The notes under the pieces: model-generated
What the model was told of the DNA's origin: nothing
The model's database searches: none
What the model saw: only the letters and a program-made list of their open reading frames with translations
Shown here: positions 19,612 to 64,000 of the stretch, one piece after another
Layout: the number at the start of each line of letters is the position of its first letter
How positions within the stretch are numbered: position 1 is the stretch's first letter
Source: Odiellus spinosus
Taxonomy: Eukaryota; Arthropoda; Arachnida; Opiliones; Phalangiidae
Assembly (NCBI GenBank): GCA_963920705.1
Contig: CAWUCO010000183.1
Span: 1,020,268 to 1,084,267 of the forward strand
Length of the DNA stretch: 64,000 nt
Direction of reading: 5' to 3'
Program-made: the position numbers and the translations under genes

Positions 19612-19703
19612 TTAACCGCCTTATTGCAAGCGCTGCATAAAAAACCCTTTCGTTTAACACGCGGTGTTGAATACCGGGAACCGACAAAAAACATTAGATT
19701 TTA

Positions 19704-22544: not shown

Positions 22545-22853
22545 TGATTGGAAAAACGTGATTGGAAAAACGTGATTGGAAAAACGTGATTGGAAAAACG
22601 TGATTGGAAAAACGTGATTGGAAAAACGTGATTGGAAAAACGTGATTGAAAAAACGTGATTGGAAAAACGTGATTGGAAAAACGTGATTGGAAAAACGTG
22701 ATTGAAAAAACGTGATTGAAAAAACGTGATTGGAAAAACGTGATTGGAAAAACGTGATTGGAAAAACGTGATTGGAAAAACGTGATTGGAAAAACGTGAT
22801 TGGAAAAACGTGATTGGAAAAACGTGATTGGAAAAACGTGATTGGGAAAACGT

Positions 22854-23175
22854 GCTTGGGAAAACGTGCTTGGGAAAACGTGCTTGGGAAAACGTGCTTG
22901 GGAAAACGTGCTTGGAAAAACTTGCTTGGAAAAACGTGCTTGGAAAAACGTGCTTGGAAAAACGTGCTTGGAAAAACGTGCTTGGAAAAACGTGCTTGGA
23001 AAAACGTGCTTGGAAAAACGTGCTTGGAAAAACGTGCTTGGAAAAACGTGCTTGGAAAAACGTGCTTGGAAAAACGTGCTTGGAAAAACGTGCTTGGAAA
23101 AACGTGCTTGGAAAAACGTGCTTGGAAAAACGTGCTTGGAAAAACGTGCTTGGAAAAACGTGCTTGGAAAAACGT
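22854..23175. repeat. Satellite block of GCTTGG units
   Basis: Exactly 23 successive 14-bp units with GCTTGG in place of GATTGG. The first few also read GGGAAAAC. This block is open on the plus strand because the TGA of the canonical unit is lost. Confidence 0.93.
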
Positions 23176-23259
23176 GATTGGTAAAACGTGATTGGAAAAA
23201 CGTGATTGGAAAAACGTGATTGGAAAAACGTGATTGGAAAAACGTGATTGGAAAAACGT

Positions 23260-24826
23260 GATCGGAAAAACCTGATCGGAAAAACCTGATCGGAAAAACC
23301 TGATCGGAAAAACCTGATCGGAAAAACCTGATCGGAAAAACCTGATCGGAAAAACGTGATCGGAAAAACGTGATCGGAAAAACGTGATCGGAAAAACGTG
23401 ATCGGAAAAACGTGATCGGAAAAACGTGATCGGAAAAACGTGATCGGAAAAACCTGATCGGAAAAACCTGATCGGAAAAACCTGATCGGAAAAACCTGAT
23501 CGGAAAAACCTGATCGGAAAAACCTGATCGGAAAAACCTGATCGGAAAAACCTGATCGGAAGAACCTGATCGGAAAAACCTGATCGGAAAAACCTGATCG
23601 GAAAAACCTGATCGGAAAAACCTGATCGGAAAAACCTGATCGGAAAAACCTGATCGGAAAAACCTGATCGGAGAAACCTGATCGGAAAAACGTGATCGGA
23701 AAAACGTGATCGGAAAAACGTGATCGGAAAAACGTGATCGGAAAAACGTGATCGGAAAAACGTGATCGGAAAAACGTGATCGGAAAAACGTGATCGGAAA
23801 AACGTGATCGGAAAAACGTGATCGGAAAAACGTGATCGGGAAAACGTGATCGGGAAAACGTGATCGGGAAAACGTGCTCGGGAAAACGTGCTCGGGAAAA
23901 CGTGCTCGGGAAAACGTGCTCGCGAAAACGTGCTCGGAAAAACGTGCTCGGAAAAACGTGCTCGGAAAAACGTGCTCGGAAAAACGTGCTCGGAAAAACG
24001 TGCTCGGAAAAACGTGCTCGGAAAAACGTGATCGGAAAAACGTGATCGGAAAAACGTGATCGGAAAAACGTGATCGGAAAAACGTGATCGGAAAAACGTG
24101 ATCGGAAAAACGTGATCGGAAAAACGTGATCGGAAAAACGTGATCGGAAAAACGTGATCGGAAAAACGTGATCGGAAAAACGTGATCGGAAAAACCTGAT
24201 CGGAAAAACCTGATCGGAAAAACCTGATCGGAAAAACCTGATCGGAAAAACCTGATCGGAAAAACCTGATCGGAAAAACCTGATCGGAAAAACCTGATCG
24301 GAAAAACCTGATCGGAAAACCTGATCGGAAAAACCTGATCGGAAAAACCTGATCGGAAAAACCTGATCGGAAAAACCTGATCGGAAAAACCTGATCGGAA
24401 AAACCTGATCGGAAAAACCTGATCGGAAAAACCTGATCGGAAAAACCTGATCGGAAAAACCTGATCGGAAAAACCTGATCGGAAAAACCTGATCGGAAAA
24501 ACCTGATCGGAAAAACCTGATCGGAAAAACCTGATCGGAAAAACCTGATCGGAAAAACCTGATCGGAAAAACCTGATCGGAAAAACCTGATCGGAAAAAC
24601 CTGATCGGAAAAACCTGATCGGAAAAACCTGATCGGAAAAACCTGATCGGAAAAACCTGATCGGAAAAACCTGATCGGAAAAACCTGATCGGAAAAGCCT
24701 GATCGGAAAAACCTGATCGGAAAAACCTGATCGGAAAAACCTGATCGGGAAAAGCTGATCGGGAAAACCTGATCGGAAAAACCTGATCGGAAAAACCTGA
24801 TCGGAAAAACCTGATCGGAAGAACCT
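23260..24826. repeat. Satellite block of GATCGG units
   Basis: About 112 units with GATCGG. Inside it the second half-unit switches between ACCT and ACGT in runs (ACCT about 23,270-23,350, 23,455-23,690 and from 24,190 on), so two variant sites spread independently. A sub-block of 11 GCTCGG units lies at 23,876-24,029. Confidence 0.92.
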
Positions 24827-27800
24827 GATTGGAAGAACGTGATTGGAAAAACGTGATTGGAAAAACGAGATTGGAAAAACCTGATTGGAAAAACCTGATT
24901 GGAAAAACCTGATTGGAAAAACCTGATTGGAAAAACCTGATTGGAAAAACCTGATTGGAAAAACCTGATTGGAAAAACCTGATTGGAAAAACCTGATTGG
25001 AAAAACGTGATTGGAAAAACGTGATTGGAAAAACGTGATTTTAAAAACGTGATTGGAAAAACGTGATTGGAAAAACGTGATTGGGAAAACGTGATTGGGA
25101 AAACTTGATTGGAAAAACGTGATTGGAAAAACGTGATTGGAAAAACGTGATTGGAAAAACGTGATTGGAAAAACGTGATTGGAAAAACGTGATTGGAAAA
25201 ACGTGATTGGAAAAACGTGATTGGAAAAACGTGATTGGAAAAACGTGATTGGAAAAACGTGATTGGAAAAACGTGATTGGAAAAACGTGATTGGAAAAAC
25301 GTGATTGGAAAAACGTGATTGGAAAAACGTGATTGGAAAAACGTGATTGGAAAAACGTGAAGGAAAAACGTGATTGGAAAAACGTGATTGGAAAAACGTG
25401 ATTGGAAAAACGTGATTGGAAAAACGTGATTGGAAAAACGTGATTGGAAAAACGTGATTGGAAAAACGTGATTGGAAAAACGTGATTTTAAAAACGTGAT
25501 TGGAAAAACGTGATTGGAAAAACGTGATTGGAAAAACGTGATTGGGAAAACGTGATTGGGAAAACTTGATTGGAAAAACGTGATTGGAAAAACGTGATTG
25601 GAAAAACGTGATTGGAAAAACGTGATTGGAAAAACGTGATTGGAAAAACGTGATTGGAAAAACGTGATTGGAAAAACGTGATTGGAAAAACGTGATTGGA
25701 AAAACGTGATTGGAAAAACGTGATTGGAAAAACGTGAAGGAAAAACGTGATTGGAAAAACGTGATTGGAAAAACGTGATTGGAAAAACGTGATTGGAAAA
25801 ACGTGATTGGAAAAACGGGATTGGAAAACGTGATTGGAAAAACGTGATTGGAAAAACGTGATTGGAAAAACGTGATTGGAAAAACGTGATTGGAAAAACG
25901 TGATTGGAAAAACGTGATTATAAAAACGTGATTGGAAAAACGTGATTGGAAAAACGTGATTGGAAAAACGTGATTGGAAAAACGTGATTGGAAAAACGTG
26001 ATTGGAAAAACGTGATTGGAAAAACGTGATTGGAATAACGTGATTGGAATAACGTGATTTGGAAAAACGTGACGTGATTGAAAAAACGTGACGTGATTGG
26101 AAAAACGTGATTGGAAAAACGTGATTGGAAAAACGTGATTGGAAAAACGTGATTGGAAAAACGTGATTGGAAAAACGTGATTGGAAAAACGTGATTGGAA
26201 AAACGTGATTGGAAAAACGTGATTGGAAAAACGTGATTGGAAAAACGTGATTGGAAAAACGTGATTGGAACAACGTGATTGGAAAAACGTGATTGGAAAA
26301 ACGTGATTGGAAAAACGTGATTGGAAAAACGTGATTGGAAAAACGTGATTGGAAAAACGTGATTGGAAAAACGTGATTGGAAAAACGTGATTGGAAAAAC
26401 GTGATTGGAAAAACGTGATTGGAAAAACGTGATTGGAAAAACGTGAAGGAAAAACCTGATTGGAAAAACCTGATTGGAAAAACCTGATTGGAAAAACCTG
26501 ATTGGAAAAACCTGATTGGAAAAACCTGATTGGAATAACGTGATTGGAAAAACGTGATTGGAAAAACGTGATTGGAAAAACGTGATTGGAAAAACGTGAT
26601 TGGAAAAACGTGATTGGAAAAACGTGATTGGAAAAACGTGATTGGAAAAACGTGATTGGGAAAACGTGATTGGAAAAACGTGATTGGAAAAACGTGATTG
26701 GAAAAACGTGATTGGAAAAACGTGATTGGAAAAACGTGATTGGAAAAACGTGATTGGAAAAACGTGAAGGAAAAACGTGATTGGAAAAACGTGATTGGAA
26801 AAACGTGATTGGAAAAACGTGATTGGAAAAACGTGATTGGAAAAACGTGAGTGGAAAAACGTGAGTGGAAAAACGTGAGTGGAAAAACGTGAGTGGAAAA
26901 ACGTGAGTGGAAAAACGTGAGTGGAAAAACGTGAGTGGAAAAACGTGAGTGGAAAAACGTGAGTGGAAAAACGTGAGTGGAAAAACCTGATTGGAAAAAC
27001 CTGATTGGAAAAACCTGATTGGAAAAACGTGATTGGAAAAACGTGATTGGAAAAACGTGATTGGAAAAACGTGATTGGAAAAACGTGATTGGAAAAACGT
27101 GATTGGAAAAACGTGATTGGAAAAACGTGATTGGAAAAACGTGATTGGAAAAACGTGATTGGAAAAACGTGATTGGAAAAACGTGATTGGAAAAACGTGA
27201 TTGGAAAAACCTGATTGGAAAAACCTGATTGGAAAAACCTGATTGGAAAAACCTGATTGGAAAAACCTGATTGGAAAAACGTGATTGGAAGAACGTGATT
27301 GGAAAAACGTGATTGGAAAAACGTGATTGGAAAAACGTGATTGGAAAAACGTGATTGGAAAAACGTGATTGGAAAAACGTGATTTAAAAAACGTGATTGG
27401 AAAAACGTGATTGGAAAACGTGATTGGAAAAACGTGATTGGAAAAACGTGATTGGAAAAACGTGATTGGAAAAACGTGATTGAAAAAACGTGATTGGAAA
27501 AACGTCATTGGAAAAACGTCATTGGAAAAACGTGATTGGAAAAACGTGATTGGAAAAACGTGATTGGAAAAACGTGATTGGAAAAACGTGATTGGAAAAA
27601 CGTGATTGGAAAAACGTGATTGGAAAAACGTGATTGGAAAAACGTGATTGGAATAACGTGATTGGAAAAACGTGATTGGAAAAACGTGATTGGAAAAACG
27701 TGATTGGAAAAACGTGATTGGAAAAACGTGATTGGAAAAACGTGATTGGAAAAACGTGATTGGAAAAACGTGATTGGAAAAACGTGATTGGAAAAACGTG

Positions 27801-30800
27801 ATTGGAAAAACGTGATTGGAAAAACGTGATTGGAAAAACGTGATTGGAAAAACGTGATTGGAAAAACGTGATTGGAAAAACGTGATTGGAAAAACGTGAT
27901 TGGAAAAACGTGATTGGAAAAACGTGATTGGAAAAACGTGATTGGAAAAACGTGATTGGAAAAACGTGAAGGAAAAACCTGATTGGAAAAACCTGATTGG
28001 AAAAACGTGATTGGAAAAACCTGATTGGAAAAACCTGATTGGAAAAACCTGATTGGAAAAACCTGATTGGAAAAACGTGATTGGAATAACGTGATTGGAA
28101 AAACGTGATTGGAAAAACGTGATTGGAAAAACGTGATTGGAAAAACGTGATTGGAAAAACGTGATTGGAAAAACGTGATTGGAAAAACGTGATTGGAAAA
28201 ACGTGATTGGAAAAACGTGATTGGAAAAACGTGATTGGAAAAACGTGATTGGAAAAACGTGATTGGAAAAACGTGAAGGAAAAACGTGATTGGAAAAACG
28301 TGATTGGAAAAACGTGATTGGAAAAACGTGATTGGAAAAACGTGATTGGAAAAACGTGAGTGGAAAAACGTGAGTGGAAAAACGTGAGTGGAAAAACGTG
28401 AGTGGAAAAACGTGAGTGGAAAAACGTGAGTGGAAAAACGTGAGTGGAAAAACGTGAGTGGAAAAACCTGAGTGGAAAAACCTGATTGGAAAAACCTGAT
28501 TGGAAAAACCTGATTGGAAAAACGTGATTGGAAAAACGTGATTGGAAAAACGTGATTGGAAAAACGTGATTGGAAAAACGTGATTGGAAAAACGTGATTG
28601 GAAAAACGTGATTGGAAAAACGTGATTGGAAAAACGTGATTGGAAAAACGTGATTGGAAAAACCTGATTGGAAAAACCTGATTGGAAAAACCTGATTGGA
28701 AAAACCTGATTGGAAAAACCTGATTGGAAAAACCTGATTGGAAAAACGTGATTGGAAGAACGTGATTGGAAAAACGTGATTGGAAAAACGTGATTGGAAA
28801 AACGTGATTGGAAAAACGTGATTTAAAAAACGTGATTGGAAAAACGTGATTGGAAAACGTGATTGGAAAAACGTGATTGGAAAAACGTGATTGGAAAAAC
28901 GTGATTGGAAAAACGTGATTGAAAAAACGTGATTGGAAAAACGTGATTGGAAAAACGTGATTGGAAAAACGTGATTGGAAAAACGTGATTGGAAAAACGT
29001 GATTGGAAAAACGTGATTGGAAAAACGTGATTGGAAAAACGTGATTGGAAAAACGTGATTGGAAAAACGTGATTGGAATAACGTGATTGGAAAAACGTGA
29101 TTGGAAAAACGTGATTGGAAAAACGTGATTGGAAAAACGTGATTGGAAAAACGTGATTGGAAAAACGTGATTGGAAAAACGTGATTGGAAAAACGTGATT
29201 GGAAAAACGTGATTGGAAAAACGTGATTGGAAAAACGTGATTGGAAAAACGTGATTGGAAAAACGTGATTGGAAAAACGTGATTGGAAAAACGTGATTGG
29301 AAAAACGTGATTGGAAAAACGTGATTGGAAAAACGTGATTGGAAAAACGTGAAGGAAAAACCTGATTGGAAAAACCTGATTGGAAAAACGTGATTGGAAA
29401 AACCTGATTGGAAAAACCTGATTGGAAAAACCTGATTGGAAAAACCTGATTGGAAAAACCTGATTGGAAAAACGTGATTGGAATAACGTGATTGGAAAAA
29501 CGTGATTGGAAAAACGTGATTGGAAAAACGTGATTGGAAAAACGTGATTGGAAAAACGTGATTGGAAAAACGTGATTGGAAAAAAGTGATTGGAAAAACG
29601 TGATTGGAAAAACGTGATTGGAAAAACGTGATTGGAAAAACGTGATTGGAAAAACGTGATTGGAAAAACGTGATTGGAAAAACGTGAAGGAAAAACGTGA
29701 TTGGAAAAACGTGATTGGAAAAACGTGATTGGAAAAACGTGATTGGAAAAACGTGAGTGGAAAAACGTGAGTGGAAAAACGTGAGTGGAAAAACGTGATT
29801 GGAATAACGTGATTGGAATAACGTGATTTGGAAAAACGTGACGTGATTGAAAAAACGTGACGTGATTGGAAAAACGTGATTGGAAAAACGTGATTGGAAA
29901 AACGTGATTGGAAAAACGTGATTGGAAAAACGTGATTGGAAAAACGTGATTGGAAAAACGTGATTGGAAAAACGTGATTGGAAAAACGTGATTGGAAAAA
30001 CGTGATTGGAAAAACGTGATTGGAACAACGTGATTGGAAAAACGTGATTGGAAAAACGTGATTGGAAAAACGTGATTGGAAAAACGTGATTGGAAAAACG
30101 TGATTGGAAAAACGTGATTGGAAAAACGTGATTGGAAAAACGTGATTGGAAAAACGTGATTGGAAAAACGTGATTGGAAAAACGTGATTGGAAAAACGTG
30201 AAGGAAAAACCTGATTGGAAAAACCTGATTGGAAAAACCTGATTGGAAAAACCTGATTGGAAAAACCTGATTGGAAAAACCTGATTGGAATAACGTGATT
30301 GGAAAAACGTGATTGGAAAAACGTGATTGGAAAAACGTGATTGGAAAAACGTGATTGGAAAAACGTGATTGGAAAAACGTGATTGGAAAAACGTGATTGG
30401 AAAAACGTGATTGGGAAAACGTGATTGGAAAAACGTGATTGGAAAAACGTGATTGGAAAAACGTGATTGGAAAAACGTGATTGGAAAAACGTGATTGGAA
30501 AAACGTGATTGGAAAAACGTGAAGGAAAAACGTGATTGGAAAAACGTGATTGGAAAAACGTGATTGGAAAAACGTGATTGGAAAAACGTGATTGGAAAAA
30601 CGTGATTGGAAAAACGTGAGTGGAAAAACGTGAGTGGAAAAACGTGAGTGGAAAAACGTGAGTGGAAAAACGTGAGTGGAAAAACGTGAGTGGAAAAACG
30701 TGAGTGGAAAAACGTGAGTGGAAAAACGTGAGTGGAAAAACGTGAGTGGAAAAACCTGATTGGAAAAACCTGATTGGAAAAACCTGATTGGAAAAACGTG

Positions 30801-33800
30801 ATTGGAAAAACGTGATTGGAAAAACGTGATTGGAAAAACGTGATTGGAAAAACGTGATTGGAAAAACGTGATTGGAAAAACGTGATTGGAAAAACGTGAT
30901 TGGAAAAACGTGATTGGAAAAACGTGATTGGAAAAACGTGATTGGAAAAACGTGATTGGAAAAACGTGATTGGAAAAACGTGATTGGAAAAACCTGATTG
31001 GAAAAACCTGATTGGAAAAACCTGATTGGAAAAACCTGATTGGAAAAACCTGATTGGAAAAACGTGATTGGAAGAACGTGATTGGAAAAACGTGATTGGA
31101 AAAACGTGATTGGAAAAACGTGATTGGAAAAACGTGATTGGAAAAACGTGATTGGAAAAACGTGATTTAAAAAACGTGATTGGAAAAACGTGATTGGAAA
31201 ACGTGATTGGAAAAACGTGATTGGAAAAACGTGATTGGAAAAACGTGATTGGAAAAACGTGATTGAAAAAACGTGATTGGAAAAACGTCATTGGAAAAAC
31301 GTGATTGGAAAAACGTGATTGGAAAAACGTGATTGGAAAAACGTGATTGGAAAAACGTGATTGGAAAAACGTGATTGGAAAAACGTGATTGGAAAAACGT
31401 GATTGGAAAAACGTGATTGGAAAAACGTGATTGGAATAACGTGATTGGAAAAACGTGATTGGAAAAACGTGATTGGAAAAACGTGATTGGAAAAACGTGA
31501 TTGGAAAAACGTGATTGGAAAAACGTGATTGGAAAAACGTGATTGGAAAAACGTGATTGGAAAAACGTGATTGGAAAAACGTGATTGGAAAAACGTGATT
31601 GGAAAAACGTGATTGGAAAAACGTGATTGGAAAAACGTGATTGGAAAAACGTGATTGGAAAAACGTGATTGGAAAAACGTGATTGGAAAAACGTGATTGG
31701 AAAAACGTGATTGGAAAAACGTGAAGGAAAAACCTGATTGGAAAAACCTGATTGGAAAAACCTGATTGGAAAAACCTGATTGGAAAAACCTGATTGGAAA
31801 AACCTGATTGGAAAAACCTGATTGGAAAAACCTGATTGGAATAACGTGATTGGAAAAACGTGATTGGAAAAACGTGATTGGAAAAACGTGATTGGAAAAA
31901 CGTGATTGGAAAAACGTGATTGGAAAAACGTGATTGGAAAAACGTGATTGGAAAAACGTGATTGGAAAAACGTGATTGGAAAAACGTGATTGGAAAAACG
32001 TGATTGGAAAAACGTGATTGGAAAAACGTGAAGGAAAAACGTGATTGGAAAAACGTGATTGGAAAAACGTGATTGGAAAAACGTGATTGGAAAAACGTGA
32101 TTGGAAAAACGTGAGTGGAAAAACGTGAGTGGAAAAACGTGAGTGGAAAAACGTGAGTGGAAAAACGTGAGTGGAAAAACGTGAGTGGAAAAACGTGAGT
32201 GGAAAAACGTGAGTGGAAAAACGTGAGTGGAAAAACCTGATTGGAAAAACCTGATTGGAAAAACCTGATTGGAAAAACGTGATTGGAAAAACGTGATTGG
32301 AAAAACGTGATTGGAAAAACGTGATTGGAAAAACGTGATTGGAAAAACGTGATTGGAAAAACGTGATTGGAAAAACGTGATTGGAAAAACGTGATTGGAA
32401 AAACGTGATTGGAAAAACCTGATTGGAAAAACCTGATTGGAAAAACCTGATTGGAAAAACCTGATTGGAAAAACCTGATTGGAAAAACCTGATTGGAAAA
32501 ACGTGATTGGAAGAACGTGATTGGAAAAACGTGATTGGAAAAACGTGATTGGAAAAACGTGATTGGAAAAACGTGATTTAAAAAACGTGATTGGAAAAAC
32601 GTGATTGGAAAACGTGATTGGAAAAACGTGATTGGAAAAACGTGATTGGAAAAACGTGATTGGAAAAACGTGATTGAAAAAACGTGATTGGAAAAACGTG
32701 ATTGGAAAAACGTCATTGGAAAAACGTGATTGGAAAAACGTGATTGGAAAAACGTGATTGGAAAAACGTGATTGGAAAAACGTGATTGGAAAAACGTGAT
32801 TGGAAAAACGTGATTGGAAAAACGTGATTGGAATAACGTGATTGGAAAAACGTGATTGGAAAAACGTGATTGGAAAAACGTGATTGGAAAAACGTGATTG
32901 GAAAAACGTGATTGGAAAAACGTGATTGGAAAAACGTGATTGGAAAAACGTGATTGGAAAAACGTGATTGGAAAAACGTGATTGGAAAAACGTGATTGGA
33001 AAAACGTGATTGGAAAAACGTGATTGGAAAAACGTGATTGGAAAAACGTGATTGGAAAAACGTGATTGGAAAAACGTGATTGGAAAAACGTGATTGGAAA
33101 AACGTGATTGGAAAAACGTGAAGGAAAAACCTGATTGTAAAAACCTGATTGGAAAAACGTGATTGGAAAAACCTGATTGGAAAAACCTGATTGGAAAAAC
33201 CTGATTGGAAAAACCTGATTGGAAAAACCTGATTGGAAAAACGTGATTGGAATAACGTGATTGGAAAAACGTGATTGGAAAAACGTGATTGGAAAAACGT
33301 GATTGGAAAAACGTGATTGGAAAAACGTGATTGGAAAAACGTGATTGGAAAAAAGTGATTGGAAAAACGTGATTGGAAAAACGTGATTGGAAAAACGTGA
33401 TTGGAAAAACGTGATTGGAAAAACGTGATTGGAAAAACGTGATTGGAAAAACGTGAAGGAAAAACGTGATTGGAAAAACGTGATTGGAAAAACGTGATTG
33501 GAAAAACGTGATTGGAAAAACGTGAGTGGAAAAACGTGAGTGGAAAAACGTGAGTGGAAAAACGTGAGTGGAAAAACGTGAGTGGAAAAACGTGAGTGGA
33601 AAAACGTGAGTGGAAAAACGTGAGTGGAAAAACCTGATTGGAAAAACCTGATTGGAAAAACGTGATTGGAAAAACGTGATTGGAAAAACGTGATTGGAAA
33701 AACGTGATTGGAAAAACGTGATTGTAAAAACGTGATTGGAAAAACGTGATTGGAAAAACGTGATTGGAAAAACGTGATTGGAAAAACGTGAAGGAAAAAC

Positions 33801-42235: not shown

Positions 42236-42238
42236 GTG

Positions 42239-43048
42239 AAGGAAAAACGCGATTGGAAAACGCGATTGGAAAAACGCGATTGGAAAAACGCGATTGGAAA
42301 AACGCGATTGGAAAAACGCGATTGGAAAAACGCGATTGGAAAAACGCGATTGGAAAAACGCGATTGGAAAAACGCGATTGGAAAAACGCGATTGGAAAAA
42401 CGCGATTGGAAAAACGCGATTGGAAAAACGCGGTTGGAAAAACGCGGTTGGAAAAACGCGGTTGGAAAAACGCGGTTGGAAAAACGCGGATGGAAAAACG
42501 CGGTTGGAAAAACGCGGTTGGAAAAACGCGGTTGGAAAAACGCGGTTGGAAAAACGCGGTTGGAAAAACGCGGTTGGAAAAACGCGGTTGGAAAAACGCG
42601 GTTGGAAAAACGCGGTTGGAAAAACGCGGTTGGAAAAACGCGGTTGGAAAAACGCGGTTGGAAAAACGCGCTTGGAAAAACGCGGTTGAAAAAACGCGGT
42701 TGGAAAAACGCGGTTGGAAAAACGCGGATGGAAAAACGCGGTTGGAAAAACGCGGTTGGAAAAACGCGGTTGGAAAAACGCGGTTGGAAAAACGCGGTTG
42801 GAAAAACGCGGTTGGAAAAACGCGGTTGGAAAAACGCGGTTGGAAAAACGCGGTTGGAAAAACGCGGTTGGAAAAACGCGCTTGGAAAAACGCGGTTGGA
42901 AAAACGCGGTTGGAAAAACGCGGTTGGAAAAACGCGGTTGGAAAAACGCGATTGGAAAAACGCGATTGGAAAAACGCGATTGGAAAAACGCGATTGGAAA
43001 AACGCGATTGGAAAAACGCGATTGGAAAAACGCAATTGGAAAAACGCG
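42239..43048. repeat. Satellite block of ACGC units, first copy
   Basis: Units end ACGC instead of ACGT. The centre of the block has GGTTGG, the edges GATTGG. The block starts right after a 12-bp GAAGG unit. Loss of TGA opens all plus-strand frames here, giving chance frames of up to 283 codons. Confidence 0.92.
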
Positions 43049-44866: not shown

Positions 44867-45699
44867 ATCGGAAAAACTGATCGGAAAAACTGATCGGAAA
44901 ACCTGATCGGAAAAACCTGATCGGAAAAACCTGATCGGAAAAACCTGATCGAAAAAACCTGATCGGAAAAACCTGATCGGAAAAACCTGATCGGAAAAAC
45001 CTGATCGGAAAAACCTGATCGGAAAAACCTGATCGGTAAAACCTGATCGGAAAAACCTGTTCGGAAAACCTGATCGGAAAAACCTGATCGGAAAAACCTG
45101 ATCGGAAAAACCTGATCGGAAAAACCTGATCGGAAAAACCTGATCGGAAAAACCTGATCGGAAAAACCTGATCGGAAAAACCTGATCGGAAAAACCTGAT
45201 CGGAAAAACCTGATCGGAAAAACCTGATCGGAAAAACCTGATCGGAAAAACCTGATCGGAAAAAACTGATCGGAAAAACCTGATCGGAAAAACCTGATCG
45301 GAAAAACCTGATCGGAAAAACCTGATCGGAAAAACTTGATCGGAAAAACCTGATCGGAAAAACCTGATCGGAAAAACCTGATCGGAAAAACCTGATCGGA
45401 AAAACCTGATCGGAAAAAAATGATCGGAAAAACCTGATCGGAAAAACCTGATCGGAAAAACCTGATCGGAAAAACCTGATCGGAAAAACCTGATCGGAAA
45501 AACCTGATCGGAAAAACCTGATCGGAAAAACCTGATCGGAAACCTGATCGGAAAAACCTGATCGGAAAAACCTGATCGGAAAAACCTGATCGGAAAAACC
45601 TGATCGGAAAAACCTGATCGGAAAAACCTGATCGGAAAAACCTGATCGGAAAAACCTGATCGGAAAAACCTGATCGGAAAAACCTGATCGGAAAAACCT
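44824..45699. repeat. Satellite block of GATCGG units, second region
   Basis: About 62 units of GATCGGAAAAACCT, the same haplotype as the distant block ending at 24,826, with a few 13-bp and shorter units. The first four units still end ACGC. Confidence 0.9.
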
Positions 45700-51600: not shown

Positions 51601-54600
51601 GGAAAAACGTGATTTGGAAAAACGTGATTGGAAAAACGTGATTGGAAAAACGTGATTGGAAAAACGTGATTTGGAAAAACGTGATTTGGAAAAACGTGAT
51701 TTGGAAAAACGTGATTGGAAAGACGTGATTTGGAAAAACGTGATTTGGAAAAACGTGATTTGGAAAAACGTGATTGGAAAAACGTGATTGGAAAAACGTG
51801 ATTGGAAAAACGTGATTTGGAAAAACGTGATTTGGAAAAACGTGATTTGGAAAAACGTGATTGGAAAGACGTGATTTGGAAAAACGTGATTGGAAAAACG
51901 TGATTGGAAAAACGTGATTGGAAAAACGTGATTGGAAAAACGTGATTGGAAAAACGTGATTGGAAAAACGTGATTGGAAAAACGTGATTGGAAAAACGTG
52001 ATTGGAAAAACGTGATTGGAAAAACGTGATTGGAAAAGCGTGATTGGAAAAACGTGATTGGAAAAACGTGATTGGAAAAACGTGATTGGAAAAACGTGAT
52101 TGGAAAAACGTGATTGGAAAAACGTGATTGGAAAAACGTGATTGGAAAAACGTGATTGGAAAAACGTGATTGGAAAACGTGATTGGAAAAACTTGATTGG
52201 AAAAACGTGATTGGAAAAACGTGATTGGAAAAACGTGATTGGAAAAACGTGATTGGAAAAACGTGATTTGGAAAAACGTGATTTGGAAAAACGTGATTGG
52301 AAAAACGTGATTGGAAAAACGTGATTTGGAAAAACGTGATTTGGAAAAACGTGATTTGGAAAAACGTGATTGGAAAAACGTGATTGGAAAAACGTGATTG
52401 GAAAAACGTGATTTGGAAAAACGTGATTTGGAAAAACGTGATTTGGAAAAACGTGATTGGAAAGACGTGATTTGGAAAAACGTGATTGGAAAAACGTGAT
52501 TGGAAAAACGTGATTGGAAAAACGTGATTGGAAAAACGTGATTGGAAAAACGTGATTGGAATAACGTGATTGGAAAAACGTGATTGGAAAAACGTGATTG
52601 GAAAAACGTGATTGGAAAAACGTGATTGGAAAAACGTGATTGGAAAAACGTGATTGGAAAAACGTAATTGGAAAAACGTGATTGGAAAAACGTGATTGGA
52701 AAAACGTGATTGGAAAAACGTGATTGGAAAAACGTGATTGGAAAAACGTGATTGGAAAAACGTGATTGGAAAAACGTGATTGGAAAAACGTGATTGGAAA
52801 AACGTGATTGGAAAAACGTGATTGGAAAAACGTGATTGGAAAAACGTGATTGGAAAAATCGTGATTGGAAAAATCGTGATTGGAAAAACTTGATTGGAAA
52901 AACGTGATTGGAAAACGTGATTGGAAAAACTTGATTGGAAAAACGTGATTGGAAAAACGTGATTGGAAAAACGTGATTGGAAAAACGTGATTGGAAAAAC
53001 GTGATTTGGAAAAACGTGATTTGGAAAAACGTGATTGGAAAAATGTGATTGGAAAAACGTGATTTGGAAAAACGTGATTTGGAAAAACGTGATTTGGAAA
53101 AACGTGATTGGAAAAACGTGATTGGAAAAACGTGATTGGAAAAACGTGATTTGGAAAAACGTGATTTGGAAAAACGTGATTTGGAAAAACGTGATTGGAA
53201 AGACGTGATTTGGAAAAACGTGATTGGAAAAACGTGATTGGAAAAACGTGATTGGAAAAACGTGATTGGAAAAACGTGATTGGAAAAACGTGATTGGAAA
53301 AACGTGATTGGAAAAACGTGATTGGAAAAACGTGATTGGAAAAACGTGATTGGAAAAACGTGATTGGAAAAACGTGATTGGAAAAACGTAATTGGAAAAA
53401 CGTGATTGGAAAAACGTGATTGGAAAAACGTGATTGGAAAAACGTGATTGGAAAAACGTGATTGGAAAAACGTGATTGGAAAAACGTGATTGGAAAAACG
53501 TGATTGGAAAAACGTGATTGGAAAAACGTGATTGGAAAAACGTGATTTGGAAAAACGTGATTTGGAAAAACGTGATTTGGAAAAACGTGATTTGGAAAAA
53601 CGTGATTGGAAAAACGTGATTGGAAAAACGTGATTGGAAAAACGTGATTTGGAAAAACGTGATTTGGAAAAACGTGATTTGGAAAAACGTGATTGGAAAA
53701 ACCTGATTTGGAAAAACCTGATTGGAAAAACCTGATTGGAAAAACCTGATTGGAAAAACCTGATTGGAAAAACCTGATTGGAAAAACCTGATTGGAAAAA
53801 CCTGATTGGAAAAACGTGATTGGAAAAACGTGATTGGAAAAACGTGATTGGAAAAACGTGATTGGAAAAACGTGATTGGAAAAACGTGATTGGAAAAACG
53901 TGATTGGAAAAACGTGATTGGAAAAACGTGATTGGAAAAACGTGATTGGAAAAACGTGATTGGAAAAATGTGATTGGAAAAACGTGATTGGAAAAACGTG
54001 ATTGGAAAAACGTGATTGGAAAAACGTATTTGGAAAAGCGTGATTGGAAAAACGTGATTGGAAAAACGTGATTGGAAAAACGTGATTGGAAAAACGTGAT
54101 TGGAAAAACGTGATTGGAAAAACGTGATTGGAAGAACGTGATTGGAAAACGTGATTGGAAAAACTTGATTGGAAAAACGTGATTGGAAAAACGTGATTGG
54201 AAAAACGTGATTGGAAAAACGTGATTGGAAAAACGTGATTTGGAAAAACGTGATTTGGAAAAACGTGATTGGAAAAACGTGATTGGAAAAACGTGATTTG
54301 GAAAAACGTGATTTGGAAAAACGTGATTTGGAAAAACGTGATTGGAAAAACGTGATTGGAAAAACGTGATTGGAAAAACGTGATTTGGAAAAACGTGATT
54401 TGGAAAAACGTGATTTGGAAAAACGTGATTGGAAAGACGTGATTTGGAAAAACGTGATTGGAAAAACGTGATTGGAAAAACGTGATTGGAAAAACGTGAT
54501 TGGAAAAACGTGATTGGAAAAACGTGATTGGAAAAACGTGATTGGAAAAACGTGATTGGAAAAACGTGATTGGAAAAACGTGATTGGAAAAACGTGATTG

Positions 54601-57600
54601 GAAAAACGTGATTGGAAAAACGTGATTGGAAAAACGTAATTGGAAAAACGTGATTGGAAAAACGTGATTGGAAAAACGTGATTGGAAAAACGTGATTGGA
54701 AAAACGTGATTGGAAAAACGTGATTGGAAAAACGTGATTGGAAAAACGTGATTGGAAAAACGTGATTGGAAAAACGTGATTGGAAAAACGTGATTGGAAA
54801 AACGTGATTGGAAAAACGTGATTGGAAAAACGTGATTGGAAAAACGTGATTGGAAAAATCGTGATTGGAAAAATCGTGATTGGAAAAACTTGATTGGAAA
54901 AACGTGATTGGAAAACGTGATTGGAAAAACTTGATTGGAAAAACGTGATTGGAAAAACGTGATTGGAAAAACGTGATTGGAAAAACGTGATTGGAAAAAC
55001 GTGATTTGGAAAAACGTGATTTGGAAAAACGTGATTGGAAAAATGTGATTGGAAAAACGTGATTTGGAAAAACGTGATTTGGAAAAACGTGATTTGGAAA
55101 AACGTGATTGGAAAAACGTGATTGGAAAAACGTGATTGGAAAAACGTGATTTGGAAAAACGTGATTTGGAAAAACGTGATTTGGAAAAACGTGATTGGAA
55201 AGACGTGATTTGGAAAAACGTGATTGGAAAAACGTGATTGGAAAAACGTGATTGGAAAAACGTGATTGGAAAAACGTGATTGGAAAAACGTGATTGGAAA
55301 AACGTGATTGGAAAAACGTGATTGGAAAAACGTGATTGGAAAAACGTGATTGGAAAAACGTGATTGGAAAAACGTGATTGGAAAAACGTAATTGGAAAAA
55401 CGTGATTGGAAAAACGTGATTGGAAAAACGTGATTGGAAAAACGTGATTGGAAAAACGTGATTGGAAAAACGTGATTGGAAAAACGTGATTGGAAAAACG
55501 TGATTGGAAAAACGTGATTGGAAAAACGTGATTGGAAAAACGTGATTGGAAAAACGTGATTTGGAAAAACGTGATTTGGAAAAACGTGATTTGGAAAAAC
55601 GTGATTGGAAAAACGTGATTGGAAAAACGTGATTGGAAAAACGTGATTTGGAAAAACGTGATTTGGAAAAACGTGATTTGGAAAAACGTGATTGGAAAAA
55701 CGTGATTTGGAAAAACCTGATTGGAAAAACCTGATTGGAAAAACCTGATTGGAAAAACCTGATTGGAAAAACCTGATTGGAAAAACCTGATTGGAAAAAC
55801 CTGATTGGAAAAACGTGATTGGAAAAACGTGATTGGAAAAACGTGATTGGAAAAACGTGATTGGAAAAACGTGATTGGAAAAACGTGATTGGAAAAACGT
55901 GATTGGAAAAACGTGATTGGAAAAACGTGATTGGAAAAACGTGATTGGAAAAATCGTGATTGGAAAAATCGTGATTGGAAAAACTTGATTGGAAAAACGT
56001 GATTGGAAAAACGTGATTGGAAAAACGTGATTGGAAAAACGTGATTGGAAAAACGTGATTGGAAAAACGTGATTGGAAAAACGTGATTGGAAAAACGTGA
56101 TTGGAAAAACGTGATTTGGAAAAACGTGATTTGGAAAAATGTGATTGGAAAAACGTGATTGGAAAAACGTGATTTGGAAAAACGTGATTTGGAAAAACGT
56201 GATTTGGAAAAACGTGATTGGAAAAACGTGATTGGAAAAACGTGATTGGAAAAACGTGATTTGGAAAAACGTGATTTGGAAAAACGTGATTTGGAAAAAC
56301 GTGATTGGAAAGACGTGATTTGGAAAAACGTGATTGGAAAAACGTGATTGGAAAAACGTGATTGGAAAAACGTGATTGGAAAAACGTGATTGGAAAAACG
56401 TGATTGGAAAAACGTGATTGGAAAAACGTGATTGGAAAAACGTGATTGGAAAAACGTGATTGGAAAAACGTGATTGGAAAAACGTGATTGGAAAAACGTG
56501 ATTGGAAAAACGTGATTGGAAAAACGTGATTGGAAAAACGTGATTGGAAAAACGTGATTGGAAAAACGTGATTGGAAAAACGTGATTGGAAAAACGTGAT
56601 TGGAAAAACGTGATTGGAAAAACGTGATTGGAAAAACGTGATTGGAAAAACGTGATTGGAAAAACGTGATTGGAAAAACGTGATTGGAAAAACGTGATTT
56701 GAAAAACGTGATTGGAAAAACGTGATTGGAAAAACGTGATTGGAAAAACTTGATTGGAAAAACGTGATTGGAAAAACGTGATTGGAAAAACGTGATTGGA
56801 AAAACGTGATTGGAAAAACGTGATTTGGAAAAACGTGATTTGGAAAAATGTGATTGGAAAAACGTGATTGGAAAAACGTGATTTGGAAAAACGTGATTTG
56901 GAAAAACGTGATTTGGAAAAACGTGATTGGAAAAACGTGATTGGAAAAACGTGATTGGAAAAACGTGATTTGGAAAAACGTGATTTGGAAAAACGTGATT
57001 TGGAAAAACGTGATTGGAAAGACGTGATTTGGAAAAACGTGATTGGAAAAACGTGATTGGAAAAACGTGATTGGAAAAACGTGATTGGAAAAACGTGATT
57101 GGAAAAACGTGATTGGAAAAACGTGATTGGAAAAACGTGATTGGAAAAACGTGATTGGAAAAACGTGATTGGAAAAACGTGATTGGAAAAACGTGATTGG
57201 AAAAACGTGATTGGAAAAACGTGATTGGAAAAACGTGATTGGAAAAACGTGATTGGAAAAACGTGATTGGAAAAACGTGATTGGAAAAACGTGATTGGAA
57301 AAACGTGATTGGAAAAACGTGATTGGAAAAACGTGATTGGAAAAACGTGATTGGAAAAACGTGATTGGAAAACGTGATTGGAAAAACTTGATTGGAAAAA
57401 CGTGATTGGAAAAACGTGATTGGAAAAACGTGATTGGAAAAACGTGATTTGAAAAACGTGATTTGGAAAAACGTGATTTGGAAAAACGTGATTGGAAAAA
57501 CGTGATTGGAAAAACGTGATTTGGAAAAACGTGATTTGGAAAAACGTGATTTGGAAAAACGTGATTGGAAAAACGTGATTGGAAAAACGTGATTGGAAAA

Positions 57601-60600
57601 ACGTGATTTGGAAAAACGTGATTTGGAAAAACGTGATTTGGAAAAACGTGATTGGAAAGACGTGATTTGGAAAAACGTGATTGGAAAAACGTGATTGGAA
57701 AAACGTGATTGGAAAAACGTGATTGGAAAAACGTGATTGGAAAAACGTGATTGGAAAAACGTGATTGGAAAAACGTGATTGGAAAAACGTGATTGGAAAA
57801 ACGTGATTGGAAAAACGTGATTGGAAAAACGTGATTGGAAAAACGTGATTGGAAAAACGTGATTGGAAAAACGTGATTGGAAAAACGTGATTGGAAAAAC
57901 GTGATTGGAAAAACGTGATTGGAAAAACGTGATTGGAAAAACGTGATTGGAAAAACGTGATTGGAAAAACGTGATTGGAAAAACGTGATTGGAAAAACGT
58001 GATTGGAAAAACGTGATTGGAAAAACGTGATTGGTAAAACGTGATTGGAAAAGCGTGATTGGAAAAACGTGATTGGAAAAACGTGATTGGAAAAACGTGA
58101 TTGGAAAAACGTGATTGGAAAAACGTGATTGGAAAAACGTGATTGGAAAAACGTGATTGGAAAAACGTGATTGGAAAAACGTGATTGGAAAACGTGATTG
58201 GAAAAACGTGATTGGAAAAACGTGATTGGAAAAACGTGATTGGAAAAACGTGACGTGATTGGAAAAACGTGACGTGATTGGAAAAACGTGACGTGATTGG
58301 AAAAACGTGATTGGAAAAACGTGATTGGAAAAACGTGATTGGAAAAACGTGATTGGAAAAACGTGATTGGAAAAACGTGATTGGAAAAACGTGATTGGAA
58401 AAATCGTGATTGGAAAAATCGTGATTGTAAAAACTTGATTGGAAAAACGTGATTGGAAAAACGTGATTGGAAAAACGTGATTGGAAAAACGTGATTGGAA
58501 AAACGTGATTGGAAAAACGTGATTGGAAAAACGTGATTGGAAAAACGTGATTGGAAAAACGTGACGTGATTGGAAAAACGTGACGTGATTGGAAAAACGT
58601 GACGTGATTGGAAAAACGTGATTGGAAAAACGTGATTGGAAAAACGTGATTGGAAAAACGTGATTGGAAAAACGTGATTGGAAAAACGTGATTGGAAAAA
58701 CGTGATTGGAAAAACGTGATTGGAAAAACGTGATTTGGAAAAACGTGATTTGGAAAAACGTGATTGGAAAAACGTGATTGGAAAAACGTGATTGGAAAAA
58801 CCTGATTGGAAAAACCTGATTGGAAAAACCTGATTGGAAAAACCTGATTGGAAAAACGTGATTGGAAAAACGTGATTGGAAAAACGTGATTGGAAAAACG
58901 TGATTGGAAAAACGTGATTGGAAAAACGTGATTGGAAAAACGTGATTGGAAAAACGTGATTGGAAAAATCGTGATTGGAAAAATCGTGATTGGAAAAACT
59001 TGATTGGAAAAACGTGATTGGAAAAACGTGATTGGAAAAACGTGATTGGAAAAACGTGATTGGAAAAACGTGATTGGAAAAACGTGATTGGAAAAACGTG
59101 ATTGGAAAAACGTGATTGGAAAAACGTGATTTGGAAAAACGTGATTTGGAAAAATGTGATTGGAAAAACGTGATTGGAAAAACGTGATTTGGAAAAACGT
59201 GATTTGGAAAAACGTGATTTGGAAAAACGTGATTGGAAAAACGTGATTGGAAAAACGTGATTGGAAAAACGTGATTTGGAAAAACGTGATTTGGAAAAAC
59301 GTGATTTGGAAAAACGTGATTGGAAAGACGTGATTTGGAAAAACGTGATTGGAAAAACGTGATTGGAAAAACGTGATTGGAAAAACGTGATTGGAAAAAC
59401 GTGATTGGAAAAACGTGATTGGAAAAACGTGATTGGAAAAACGTGATTGGAAAAACGTGATTGGAAAAACGTGATTGGAAAAACGTGATTGGAAAACGTG
59501 ATTGGAAAAACGTGATTGGAAAAACGTGATTGGAAAAACGTGATTGGAAAAACGTGATTGGAAAAACGTGATTGGAAAAACGTGATTGGAAAAACGTGAT
59601 TGGAAAAACGTGATTGGAAAAACTTGATTGGAAAAACGTGATTGGAAAAACGTGATTGGAAAAACGTGATTGGAAAAACGTGATTGGAAAAACGTGATTT
59701 GGAAAAACGTGATTTGGAAAAATGTGATTGGAAAAACGTGATTGGAAAAACGTGATTTGGAAAAACGTGATTTGGAAAAACGTGATTTGGAAAAACGTGA
59801 TTGGAAAAACGTGATTGGAAAAACGTGATTGGAAAAACGTGATTTGGAAAAACGTGATTTGGAAAAACGTGATTTGGAAAAACGTGATTGGAAAGACGTG
59901 ATTTGGAAAAACGTGATTGGAAAAACGTGATTGGAAAAACGTGATTGGAAAAACGTGATTGGAAAAACGTGATTGGAAAAACGTGATTGGAAAAACGTGA
60001 TTGGAAAAACGTGATTGGAAAAACGTGATTGGAAAAACGTGATTGGAAAAACGTGATTGGAAAAACGTGATTGGAAAAACGTGATTGGAAAAACGTGATT
60101 GGAAAAACGTGATTGGAAAAACGTGATTGGAAAAACGTGATTGGAAAAACGTGATTGGAAAAACGTGATTGGAAAAACGTGATTGGAAAAACGTGATTGG
60201 AAAAACGTGATTGGAAAAACGTGATTGGAAAAACGTGATTGGAAAAACGTGATTGGAAAAACGTGATTGGAAAAACGTGATTGGAAAACGTGATTGGAAA
60301 AACTTGATTGGAAAAACGTGATTGGAAAAACGTGATTGGAAAAACGTGATTGGAAAAACGTGATTGGAAAAACGTGATTTGGAAAAACGTGATTTGGAAA
60401 AACGTGATTTGGAAAAACGTGATTGGAAAAACGTGATTGGAAAAACGTGATTGGAAAAACGTGATTTGGAAAAACGTGATTTGGAAAAACGTGATTTGGA
60501 AAAACGTGATTGGAAAGACGTGATTTGGAAAAACGTGATTGGAAAAACGTGATTGGAAAAACGTGATTGGAAAAACGTGATTGGAAAAACGTGATTGGAA

Positions 60601-63600
60601 AAACGTGATTGGAAAAACGTGATTGGAAAAACGTGATTGGAAAAACGTGATTGGAAAAACGTGATTGGAAAAACGTGATTGGAAAAACGTGATTGGAAAA
60701 ACGTTATTGGAAAAACGTGATTGGAAAAACGTGATTGGAAAAACGTGATTGGAAAAACGTGATTGGAAAAACGTGATTGGAAAAACGTGATTGGAAAAAC
60801 GTGATTGGAAAAACGTGATTGGAAAAACGTGATTGGAAAAACGTGATTGGAAAAACGTGATTGGAAAAACGTGATTGGAAAAACGTGATTGGAAAAACGT
60901 GATTGGAAAAACGTGATTGGAAAAACGTGATTGGAAAAGCGTGATTGGAAAAACGTGATTGGAAAAACGTGATTGGAAAAACGTGATTGGAAAAACGTGA
61001 TTGGAAAAACGTGATTGGAAAAACGTGATTGGAAAAACGTGATTGGAAAAACGTGATTGGAAAAACGTGATTGGAAAACGTGATTGGAAAAACGTGATTG
61101 GAAAAACGTGATTGGAAAAACGTGATTGGAAAAACGTGACGTGATTGGAAAAACGTGACGTGATTGGAAAAACGTGACGTGATTGGAAAAACGTGATTGG
61201 AAAAACGTGATTGGAAAAACGTGATTGGAAAAACGTGATTGGAAAAACGTGATTGGAAAAACGTGATTGGAAAAACGTGATTGGAAAAATCGTGATTGGA
61301 AAAATCGTGATTGTAAAAACTTGATTGGAAAAACGTGATTGGAAAAACGTGATTGGAAAAACGTGATTGGAAAAACGTGATTGGAAAAACGTGATTGGAA
61401 AAACGTGATTGGAAAAACGTGATTGGAAAAACGTGATTGGAAAAACGTGATTGGAAAAACGTGATTGGAAAAACGTGATTGGAAAAACGTGAGTGGAAAA
61501 ACGTGAGTGGAAAAACGTGAGTGGAAAAACGTGAGTGGAAAAACGTGAGTGGAAAAACGTGAGTGGAAAAACGTGAGTGGAAAAACGTGAGTGGAAAAAC
61601 GTGAGTGGAAAAACGTGAGTGGAAAAACGTGAGTGGAAAAACGTGAGTGGAAAAACGTGAGTGGAAAAACGTGATTGGAAAAACGTGATTGGAAAAACGT
61701 GATTGGAAAAACGTGATTGGAAAAACGTGATTGGAAAAACGTGATTGGAAAAACGTGATTGGAAAAACGTGATTGGAAAACGTGATTGGAAAAACGTGAT
61801 TGGAAAAACGTGATTGGAAAAACGTGATTGGAAAAACGTGATTGGAAAAACGTGATTGGAAAAACGTGATTGAAAAAACGTGATTGGAAAAACGTGATTG
61901 GAAAAACGTGATTGGAAAAACGTGATTGGAAAAACGTGATTGGAAAAACGTGATTGGAAAAACGTGATTGGAAAAACGTGATTGGAAAAACGTGATTGGA
62001 AAAACGTGATTGGAAAAACGTGATTGGAAAAACGTGATTGGAAAAACGTGATTGGAAAAACGTGATTGGAAAAACGTGATTGGAAAAACGTGATTGGAAA
62101 AACGTGATTGGAAAAACGTGATTGGAAAAACGTGATTGGAAAAACGTGATTGGAAAAACGTAATTGGAAAAACGTGATTGGAAAAACGTGATTTGGAAAA
62201 ACGTGATTTGGAAAAACGTGATTGGAAAAACGTGATTGGAAAAACGTGATTGGAAAAACGTGATTGGAAAAACGTGATTTGGAAAAACGTGACGTGATTG
62301 GAAAAACGTGACGTGATTGGAAAAACGTGATTGGAAAAACGTGATTGGAAAAACGTGATTGGAAAAACGTGATTGGAAAAACGTGATTGGAAAAACGTGA
62401 TTGGAAAAACGTGATTGGAAAAACGTGATTGGAAAAACGTGATTGGAAAAACGTGATTGGAAAAACGTGATTGGAAAAACGTGATTGGAAAAATCGTGAT
62501 TGGAAAAATCGTGATTGGAAAAACTTGATTGGAAAAACGTGATTGAAAAAACGTGATTGGAAAAACGTGATTGGAAAAACGTGATTGGAAAAACGTGATT
62601 GGAAAAACGTGATTGGAAAAACGTGATTGGAAAAACGTGATTGGAAAAACGTGATTGGAAAAACGTGATTGGAAAAACGTGATTGGAAAAACGTGATTGG
62701 AAAAACGTGAGTGGAAAAACGTGAGTGGAAAAACGTGAGTGGAAAAACGTGAGTGGAAAAACGTGAGTGGAAAAACGTGAGTGGAAAAACGTGAGTGGAA
62801 AAACGTGAGTGGAAAAACGTGAGTGGAAAAACGTGAGTGGAAAAACGTGATTGGAAAAACGTGATTGGAAAAACGTGATTGGAAAAACGTGATTGGAAAA
62901 ACGTGATTGGAAAAACGTGATTGGAAAAACGTGATTGGAAAAACGTGATTGGAAAAACGTGATTGGAAAAACGTGATTGGAAAAACGTGATTGGAAAAAC
63001 GTGATTGGAAAAACGTGATTGGAAAAACGTGATTGGAAAAACGTGATTGGAAAAACGTGATTGGAAAAACGTGATTGGAAAAACGTGATTGGAAAAACGT
63101 GATTGGAAAAACGTGATTGGAAAAACGTGATTGGAAAAACGTGATTGGAAAAACGTGATTGGAAAAACGTGATTGGAAAAACGTGATTGGAAAAACGTGA
63201 TTGGAAAAACGTGATTGGAAAAACGTGATTGGAAAAACGTGATTGGAAAAACGTGATTGGAAAAACGTGATTGGAAAAACGTGATTGGAAAAACGTGATT
63301 GGAAAAACGTGATTGGAAAAACGTGATTGGAAAAACGTGATTGGAAAAACGTGATTGGAAAAACGTGATTGGAAAAACGTGATTTGGAAAAACGTGATTT
63401 GGAAAAACGTGATTGGAAAAACGTGATTGGAAAAACGTGATTGGAAAAACGTGATTGGAAAGACGTGATTGGAAAAACGTGATTGGAAAAACGTGATTGG
63501 AAAAACGTGATTGGAAAAACGTGATTGGAAAAACGTGATTGAAAAAACGTGATTGGAAAAACGTGATTGGAAAAACGTGATTGGAAAAACGTGATTGGAA

Positions 63601-64000
63601 AAACGTGATTGGAAAAACGTGATTTGGAAAAACGTGATTTGGAAAAACGTGATTTGGAAAAACGTGATTGGAAAAACGTGATTTGGAAAAACGTGATTTG
63701 GAAAAACGTGATTGGAAAAACGTGATTGGAAAAACGTGATTGGAAAAACGTGATTGGAAAAACGTGATTGGAAAAACGTGATTGGAAAAACGTGATTGGA
63801 AAAACGTGATTGGAAAAACGTGATTGGAAAAACGTGATTGGAAAAACGTGATTTGGAAAAACGTGACGTGATTGGAAAAACGTGACGTGATTGGAAAAAC
63901 GTGACGTGATTGGAAAAACGTGATTGGAAAAACGTGATTGGAAAAACGTGATTGGAAAAACGTGATTGGAAAAACGTGATTGGAAAAACGTGATTGGAAA
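45700..64000. repeat. Satellite region with 15-bp GATTTGG units and long-range duplications
   Basis: A GATTGG-ACGT background with groups of 15-bp GATTTGG units, ACCT runs and the markers GGAAAGAC and AAAATCGTG (doubled). Marker distances show recent segment duplications, for example exactly 2,000 bp (52,859 and 54,859; 53,197 and 55,197) and 2,886 bp (58,051 and 60,937; 58,423 and 61,309). GAGTGG runs return at 61,491-61,672 (13 units) and 62,709-62,848 (10 units). The array continues past the window. Confidence 0.88.

What the first reader, a model, noticed from the sequence alone, without database searches (positions are those of the whole stretch)
22545..64000. A 41-kb pure 14-bp satellite with layered higher-order structure
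About 2,960 copies of GATTGGAAAAACGT run unbroken to the window edge. Variants are not scattered but form blocks, and rare marker units recur at kilobase distances. Arrays of so short a unit with several levels of higher-order repeat are not often described outside alpha-satellite-like systems. It may be a major heterochromatic satellite of this species.
Basis: partly seen in the sequence, partly recalled or inferred. Interest (0 to 1): 0.7.

Follow-up and report, generated by a model that had tools for sequence, protein, structure and literature searches.

The report
Fast-evolving 14-base satellite DNA array
A long stretch of a harvestman's DNA is one 14-letter word repeated thousands of times; it is ordinary satellite DNA, but duplicated copies of it let one see, unit by unit, how such arrays grow, shrink and get copied in blocks.

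Summary
Confirmed: window 22545-64000 is an uninterrupted 14-bp array, 2,942 monomers, 1,787 of them exactly GATTGGAAAAACGT (so not pure), in runs of like variants. It begins a 189-kb array, followed by a 20-kb Maverick/Polinton insertion and more 14-bp DNA, on a 1.44-Mb contig ending in TTAGG repeats. Layering is real: a 0.6-0.8-kb module (15 marker copies), kilobase duplications, a 45-kb duplication. The exact 14-mer is nearly confined to this and later-numbered contigs, but a genome-wide family with a GAAAAAC core at 14-bp spacing fills at least 2.5 Mb (0.57%). Likeliest mechanism: monomer slippage or misregistered sister-chromatid conversion makes and shifts runs, and unequal exchange copies blocks. 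Near the spacer of the 45-kb duplication the two copies keep run order but differ in run length, while the spacer differs by 0.1%. Short-unit satellites with long repeats are known (human HSat2,3), and the run dynamics resemble human minisatellite MSY1: a new member of a known kind. Unexplained: in a second copy of the locus 83 of 83 consecutive monomers share a one-column change while many other marks keep their order. Function and heterochromatin were not testable.

The parts
22545..64000 (+). 14-bp satellite array, consensus GATTGGAAAAACGT; first 41.5 kb of a 188.9-kb array (C183:1042812-1231704)
22047..22544 (.). copy of a dispersed repeat cut off by the array: six of six fetched relatives outside C264 run on past the point where the array starts here; the start at about 22047 is inferred because most matches begin at query base 3 or 4
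22546..24800 (+). edge block rich in position-2 C, position-4 C and position-13 C variants; many of its marks recur in like order in the second copy of the locus (C264), where position 14 is C in 83 of 83 monomers after the first 13
24314..35500 (+). segment with kilobase duplications (e.g. 26017-27561 recurs 3,769 bp on, 32472-33665 recurs about 1,780 bp on)
41500..46500 (+). block of ACCT- and ACGC-type monomers (position 13 or 14 changed) inside the ACGT array
47154..60536 (+). irregular higher-order module of about 0.6-0.8 kb with 15 copies of a 44-bp marker, itself copied in larger steps (e.g. 3.4 kb); this marker occurs nowhere else in the assembly, C264 included

Best explanation
It is a non-coding short-unit satellite array, one locus of a genome-wide family of 14-bp (and 15- and 17-bp) tandem repeats around a GAAAAAC core. 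It probably has no sequence-specific job at this locus and persists as a self-amplifying passenger of replication and repair. Two processes build it. (1) Within a few units, replication slippage or gene conversion between sister chromatids shifted by a whole unit copies a monomer onto its neighbour; a point mutation thereby becomes a run, runs gain or lose whole units, and run borders move. (2) Unequal exchange or break-induced copying duplicates blocks of about 0.7 kb, 1-4 kb and 45 kb, giving the layered higher-order pattern. Shown: the run structure, whole-unit indels between duplicates, conserved run order with changed run length near the spacer, block duplications, rapid loss of similarity between the two copies of the locus. 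Inferred: the molecular machinery, and the absence of a function.
For: Runs and one-step transitions far above shuffles. Thirteen duplicated blocks in the window versus a mean of 0.38 in run shuffles. In eight block alignments 13 of 14 gaps of 10 bp or more are multiples of 14; one 3,067-bp block recurs 3,424 bp on without a difference. The 45-kb duplication: a 2,663-bp non-satellite spacer is 99.887% identical between copies, yet in the nearest 230 versus 207 monomers there are 14 gap entries (43 monomers) and 4 changed monomers, with the sequence of run types kept (the last three gap entries lie at the cut-off end); one stretch has 34 monomers in both copies with the borders of a position-4 C run moved, a length-neutral boundary shift. 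Second copy of the locus on C264: flank reported at 100% identity over 1,499 and 498 bp, but the marker of the window's 0.6-0.8-kb module is absent from it (15 of 15 hits on C183) and it has private unit types (19 of 19 hits on C264). Human minisatellite MSY1 shows the same mutation classes in single molecules: gains or losses of 1-3 units, and boundary switches explained by misregistered synthesis-dependent strand annealing (PMC2599865, passages).
Against: No reads were seen, so kilobase duplications could partly be assembly errors. Aligning all 367 monomers of copy 2 shows that order is less well kept beyond the first 230. One claimed duplicate (24314, lag about 440) is only 92% alike with column-wise runs of differences. 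The one-column change over 83 monomers in C264 is not a simple outcome of whole-unit copying. Of 109 intersecting variant domains 30 overlap partially, fewer than for independent columns but more than strict whole-monomer genealogies give.
Confidence: 0.72

Rival explanations
1. Assembly artefact: the assembler expanded, collapsed or misjoined a shorter array, and the higher-order pattern is its by-product.
For: Unplaced 1.44-Mb contig; a second copy of the locus on a 355,000-bp contig (a round length, possibly a scaffolder break; inference); no reads available; one block pair without any difference over 3,067 bp.
Against: The data are HiFi reads with an assembly QV of 60.6 (PMC11503004, section 5 read). 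The marker spacings (146-3,087 bp) fit inside typical HiFi reads (read length recalled, not from a call). Run order agrees between the 45-kb duplicates, and junction-to-spacer length agrees between the two contigs once the 20-kb insertion is taken off (221,646 versus 221,298 bp).
Confidence: 0.12
2. The repeats are the inner tandem part of a Helentron/HINE mobile element, which spread them (as in oyster and Drosophila).
For: A Helitron-type gene (PIF1 helicase, Helitron_like_N domains) ends about 1.8 kb from the array; the flank of the array is a dispersed repeat; such carriage is known (PMC7492417, passages).
Against: Seven relatives of the flank were fetched at the junction: C264 shares the array, the other six continue as ordinary repeat with no array, so the array breaks this element and is not its inner part. 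The flank of the spacer side has three places in the genome, all at this locus or its second copy.
Confidence: 0.07
3. A selected centromeric or heterochromatin satellite whose core (GAAAAAC) is a protein-binding site.
For: The core varies less: in the 188.9-kb array positions 7-12 deviate in 47-106 monomers each, positions 1-4 in 214-593 and position 13 in 3,550; the core is shared by arrays on C1-C5.
Against: The core pattern itself selects arrays that keep the core. The array here lies about 0.11-0.40 Mb from a TTAGG-bearing contig end and family arrays lie at many chromosome positions. No binding or chromatin data.
Confidence: 0.07
4. A coding array: the minus strand is open for up to 2,114 codons.
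For: Long open frames on the minus strand, the same peptide repeat in all three frames.
Against: Openness follows from the unit itself: only 3 of 42 single substitutions make a minus-strand stop; those three occur (390 monomers) and the array has 167-183 minus-strand stops per frame.
Confidence: 0.01

Closest known systems
Human Satellites 2 and 3 (HSat2,3; CATTC-derived)
   Same: Short basic unit, diverged into location-specific subfamilies, with kilobase units layered on top (1.77 kb, 3.6 kb) (PMC4022460, passages)
   Different: Different sequence and unit length; HSat2,3 fill megabases of pericentromeric heterochromatin, which was not tested here; units here are irregular
Human Y minisatellite MSY1 (modular runs, boundary switches)
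   Same: Runs of variant units, whole-unit gains and losses, length-neutral shifts of run borders (PMC2599865, passages; here)
   Different: MSY1 has tens of 25-bp units at one locus (unit length recalled); here thousands of 14-bp units plus kilobase block duplications
Alpha-satellite higher-order repeats
   Same: Unit variants arranged in multi-unit blocks that are themselves copied (general knowledge)
   Different: 14-bp not 171-bp unit; no fixed-length tandem higher-order unit found (spacing 146-3,087 bp; TRF found none)
Helentron/HINE-carried satellite-like repeats (oyster, Drosophila)
   Same: Tandem repeats next to mobile-element sequence (PMC7492417, passages)
   Different: Six of six flank relatives outside C264 lack an array

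Membership tests
Satellite DNA (short-unit, multi-locus family) | Long head-to-tail array of a short unit | tested here: met
   2,942 monomers in the window, 13,428 parsed monomers over 188.9 kb
Satellite DNA (short-unit, multi-locus family) | Related arrays at several loci, homogenised per locus | tested here: met
   181,949 core places versus 34 control; arrays with other unit types on C1, C2, C3, C4, C5
Satellite DNA (short-unit, multi-locus family) | Heterochromatic location | not testable with these tools
   no chromatin or FISH data
Higher-order repeat in the alpha-satellite sense | Multi-monomer unit recurring with high identity | tested here: met
   13 duplicated blocks in the window; 15 copies of a module marker
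Higher-order repeat in the alpha-satellite sense | Fixed-length unit repeated head to tail | tested here: not met
   marker spacings irregular, 146-3,087 bp; TRF up to 2 kb found no row over period 100, possibly because of its settings
MSY1-type modular minisatellite behaviour | Whole-unit changes in run length between related copies | tested here: met
MSY1-type modular minisatellite behaviour | Length-neutral boundary switches | tested here: inconclusive
   one clear case, 34 monomers in both copies with moved borders; a loss plus an equal gain is not excluded
Helentron/HINE central repeats | Same mobile-element flanks around arrays at other loci | tested here: not met
   six of six flank relatives outside C264 have no array at that point; right-hand flanks of other arrays were not tested
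Maverick/Polinton (the insertion in the array) | About 15-20 kb, long terminal inverted repeats, 6-bp target duplication, rve integrase and DNA_pol_B_2 | tested here: met
   20,004 bp, 399-bp inverted ends 96.5% alike, CCTGAT duplication, rve and DNA_pol_B_2 matches in two of eight ORFs scanned; the list of defining features is recalled

The most novel reading that the evidence does not exclude
Column-wise sweep: in these arrays a single base position can be rewritten through dozens of consecutive units by very short conversion tracts (or a concerted mutation) without rearranging the other marks, so that each of the 14 columns evolves as its own one-dimensional domain pattern. The second copy of the locus (C264) has C at position 14 in 83 of 83 consecutive monomers while many of the other marks (position 7 G, then positions 2 and 7, then position 2 C, plain, position 4 C, positions 4 and 9, positions 4 and 7) follow in the order seen in C183, where position 14 is T throughout that block. 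Against: C264 has extra runs that C183 lacks and the reverse, and the comparison covers 1.35 kb only.
Probability: 0.17. Interest if true: 0.65.

Novelty: new member of a known kind. Interest (0 to 1): 0.4.

Why it matters
Models of satellite evolution rest mostly on theory and on human loci. Here a 45-kb internal duplication with a single-copy spacer, and a second copy of the whole locus, act as clocks beside thousands of typed units, so rates of unit gain, loss, border shift and block duplication can be measured against substitutions in one arthropod locus. A search for Opiliones, harvestmen, satellite DNA and heterochromatin in the held library listed no paper on a harvestman satellite (11 papers listed, listing only), and a search for five 14-base rotations or complements of the unit found one unrelated salmon paper.

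Tried and rejected
Helentron-carried array: tested by fetching the junction of seven flank relatives and rejected for this flank. Coding array: rejected. A search for the lost half of the cut repeat at the far side of the array among the fetched loci found it only in the six relatives, not at the locus. Exact monomer-string repeats: too strict, and the first-order Markov control was poor because rare states replay their own path. TRF with long periods gave nothing. Nucleotide alignment of the 45-kb duplicates misregistered (124 mismatches), and a first monomer alignment with cheap gaps was useless; the third is used. The first degenerate core pattern had 15-bp spacing by my mistake; it turned out to find sister arrays with 15-bp units (3,302 + 54 places). 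A second core pattern at 14-bp spacing gave 26,647 + 1,763 places. The 18S rRNA search for the species failed; the species rests on contig lengths.

Full report
What is there. The window lies at C183:1020268-1084267 of a 443,074,358-bp assembly in 286 contigs. From 22545 to the window edge it is one head-to-tail array of GATTGGAAAAACGT. A wrap-around parse gives 2,942 monomers in the window, 1,787 identical to consensus and 95 types. On C183 the array continues to 1231704, 188,893 bp and 13,428 parsed monomers in all, the longest 21 bp, so no foreign insert lies in it. Then come a 20,004-bp insertion, further 14-bp DNA with ACCT, ACAT and ACAG endings, and a 2.66-kb spacer at about 1284.4 kb that recurs 44,981 bp on. 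A sampled stretch at 1374-1384 kb has no 14-bp periodicity, and the contig ends in TTAGG repeats. The stretches 1294-1324 kb, 1334-1374 kb and 1384-1434 kb were not read.

Which organism. Seven chromosome-size contig lengths seen (C4, C5, C7, C8, C12, C15, C17) agree with the published table for Odiellus spinosus (25.33, 24.93, 24.62, 20.45, 23.73, 17.21, 13.74 Mb), and the 16,074-bp COX1-bearing contig with its 16.07-kb mitochondrion (PMC11503004, abstract, passages and section 5 read). The published total is 443,687,896 bp in 310 scaffolds, not the same as here, so this may be another version. The species is an inference.

More than chance. Like monomers cluster (74.2% identical neighbours versus 38.4% shuffled), neighbours that differ do so mostly by one base (86.9% of 405 versus 50.2%), and 13 collinear duplicated blocks are found versus a mean of 0.38 in run shuffles and 1.1 in monomer shuffles. 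Between 47 and 60 kb a module of about 50 monomers with off-length marker units recurs irregularly; its 44-bp marker has 15 copies in the whole assembly, all here. Beyond the window larger blocks recur, for example 121781-124847 (window-based numbering), identical over 3,067 bp at a distance of 3,424 bp. Not in favour of a regular higher-order unit: the irregular spacing, the TRF blank, and the weak result of the strict string test in the window.

Family. The exact dimer has 11,963 places; 14 lie on C4, C5 and C8, 6,365 in the part of C183 that I hold as one string and 9 in L033, and 5,575 are in parts or contigs not listed. The core GAAAAAC three times at 14-bp spacing has 113,404 + 68,545 places against 1 + 33 for the reversed pattern: about 2.55 Mb, 0.57% of the assembly, a lower bound for the family and dependent on the pattern chosen. 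Sister arrays with 15-bp units (3,302 + 54 places of one pattern) and a 17-bp array abutting a 14-bp one (L008) exist. Each array seen has its own unit types.

Borders and second copy. The 500 bp left of the array is a dispersed repeat (48 matched stretches among the 40 best of 838 candidates). Of seven relatives read across the junction, C264 has the same junction and array, and the other six run on as repeat: the array cuts this copy. C264 is a second copy of the locus: window 9000-10500 matches it at 100% over 1,499 bp, the flank at 100% over 498 bp, the spacer at 100%. From junction to spacer it has 221,298 bp, C183 has 241,656 bp, or 221,646 bp without the insertion and its 6-bp duplication. 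Of the 40 best-scoring relatives of the insertion (175 candidates) none is on C264, which suggests that the insertion came after the two copies separated. The inside of the array has changed much faster: the first run is 5 instead of 7 units, beyond 13 monomers all 83 read units of C264 have C at position 14, the module marker is missing (0 of 15 hits), and GCTTGGAAAAACGC dimers occur only there (19 of 19). Only about 1.35 kb of the C264 array was read.

How it works. The 45-kb duplication is the best clock. Its spacer differs by 0.113% over 2,663 bp. In the array next to it 193 of the 230 monomers of copy 2 pair with identical monomers, 4 pair with changed ones, and 10 and 33 monomers are private to copy 1 and copy 2, in 14 gap entries; the run types come in the same order. 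A run of ten ACGT units stands in copy 2 only. One stretch has 34 monomers in both copies but the position-4 C run covers 10 in one (one of them with a further change) and 17 in the other, which looks like a length-neutral border shift. Farther from the spacer the order is less well kept (269 identical, 6 changed, 33 and 92 private). Across eight block alignments 13 of 14 gaps of 10 bp or more are multiples of 14. These are the mutation classes seen at MSY1, where misregistered synthesis-dependent strand annealing was proposed (PMC2599865, passages). I infer the same kind of process plus unequal exchange for the blocks. The process leaves recombination inside units: 30 of 109 intersecting variant domains (11 of 37, 8 of 31, 11 of 41 in three arrays) overlap partially.

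What is known and what is not. Short-unit satellites with kilobase units and local subfamilies are known (HSat2,3; PMC4022460, passages). Whole-unit and boundary mutations are known (MSY1). What is uncommon is to have both layers with two internal clocks. The C264 one-column change is not explained by whole-unit copying and is offered as the boldest reading. Function, chromatin and read support were not tested.

Noticed in passing
L022-L025 (C183:1231705-1251708): A 20,004-bp Maverick/Polinton in the satellite array with 399-bp inverted ends and a CCTGAT target duplication; rve and DNA_pol_B_2 domains; a 700-bp piece has at least 40 relatives at 98-100% identity in this genome, which suggests recent activity.
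   Followed up: partly
window 14588-20723, minus strand: Helitron-type genes with long open frames: a 1,165-aa PIF1 helicase and a 445-aa Helitron_like_N/DUF6570 protein, beside a 339-aa ORF with 63-bp coding repeats at 19879-20570.
   Followed up: partly
window 6342-6905 and 6377-6605: An 18-bp repeat (12.7 copies, 98% matches) that codes SSPDEP repeats in a minus-strand ORF with a CCHC-like motif (motif reading recalled).
   Followed up: no
window 1081-3015 and 11682-12971: Two other tandem arrays, with units of about 100 bp and about 323 bp.
   Followed up: no
C183:1012236 and 1029267 (window 9000-10500): A near-identical copy of the left part of the window lies 17,031 bp upstream, and a 94% copy on C207.
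   Followed up: no
G000:C17: Eight fragments matching mitochondrial COX1 with table-11 stops on the 13.74-Mb chromosome, probably nuclear mitochondrial DNA.
   Followed up: no
L008 2601-3028 (C5) and L038 (C2): Sister tandem arrays: a 17-bp unit GGGGGTTTCTCCAACCA abutting the 14-bp array in what looks like opposite orientation, and a 15-bp unit GGTTCTTTCGAACCA.
   Followed up: no
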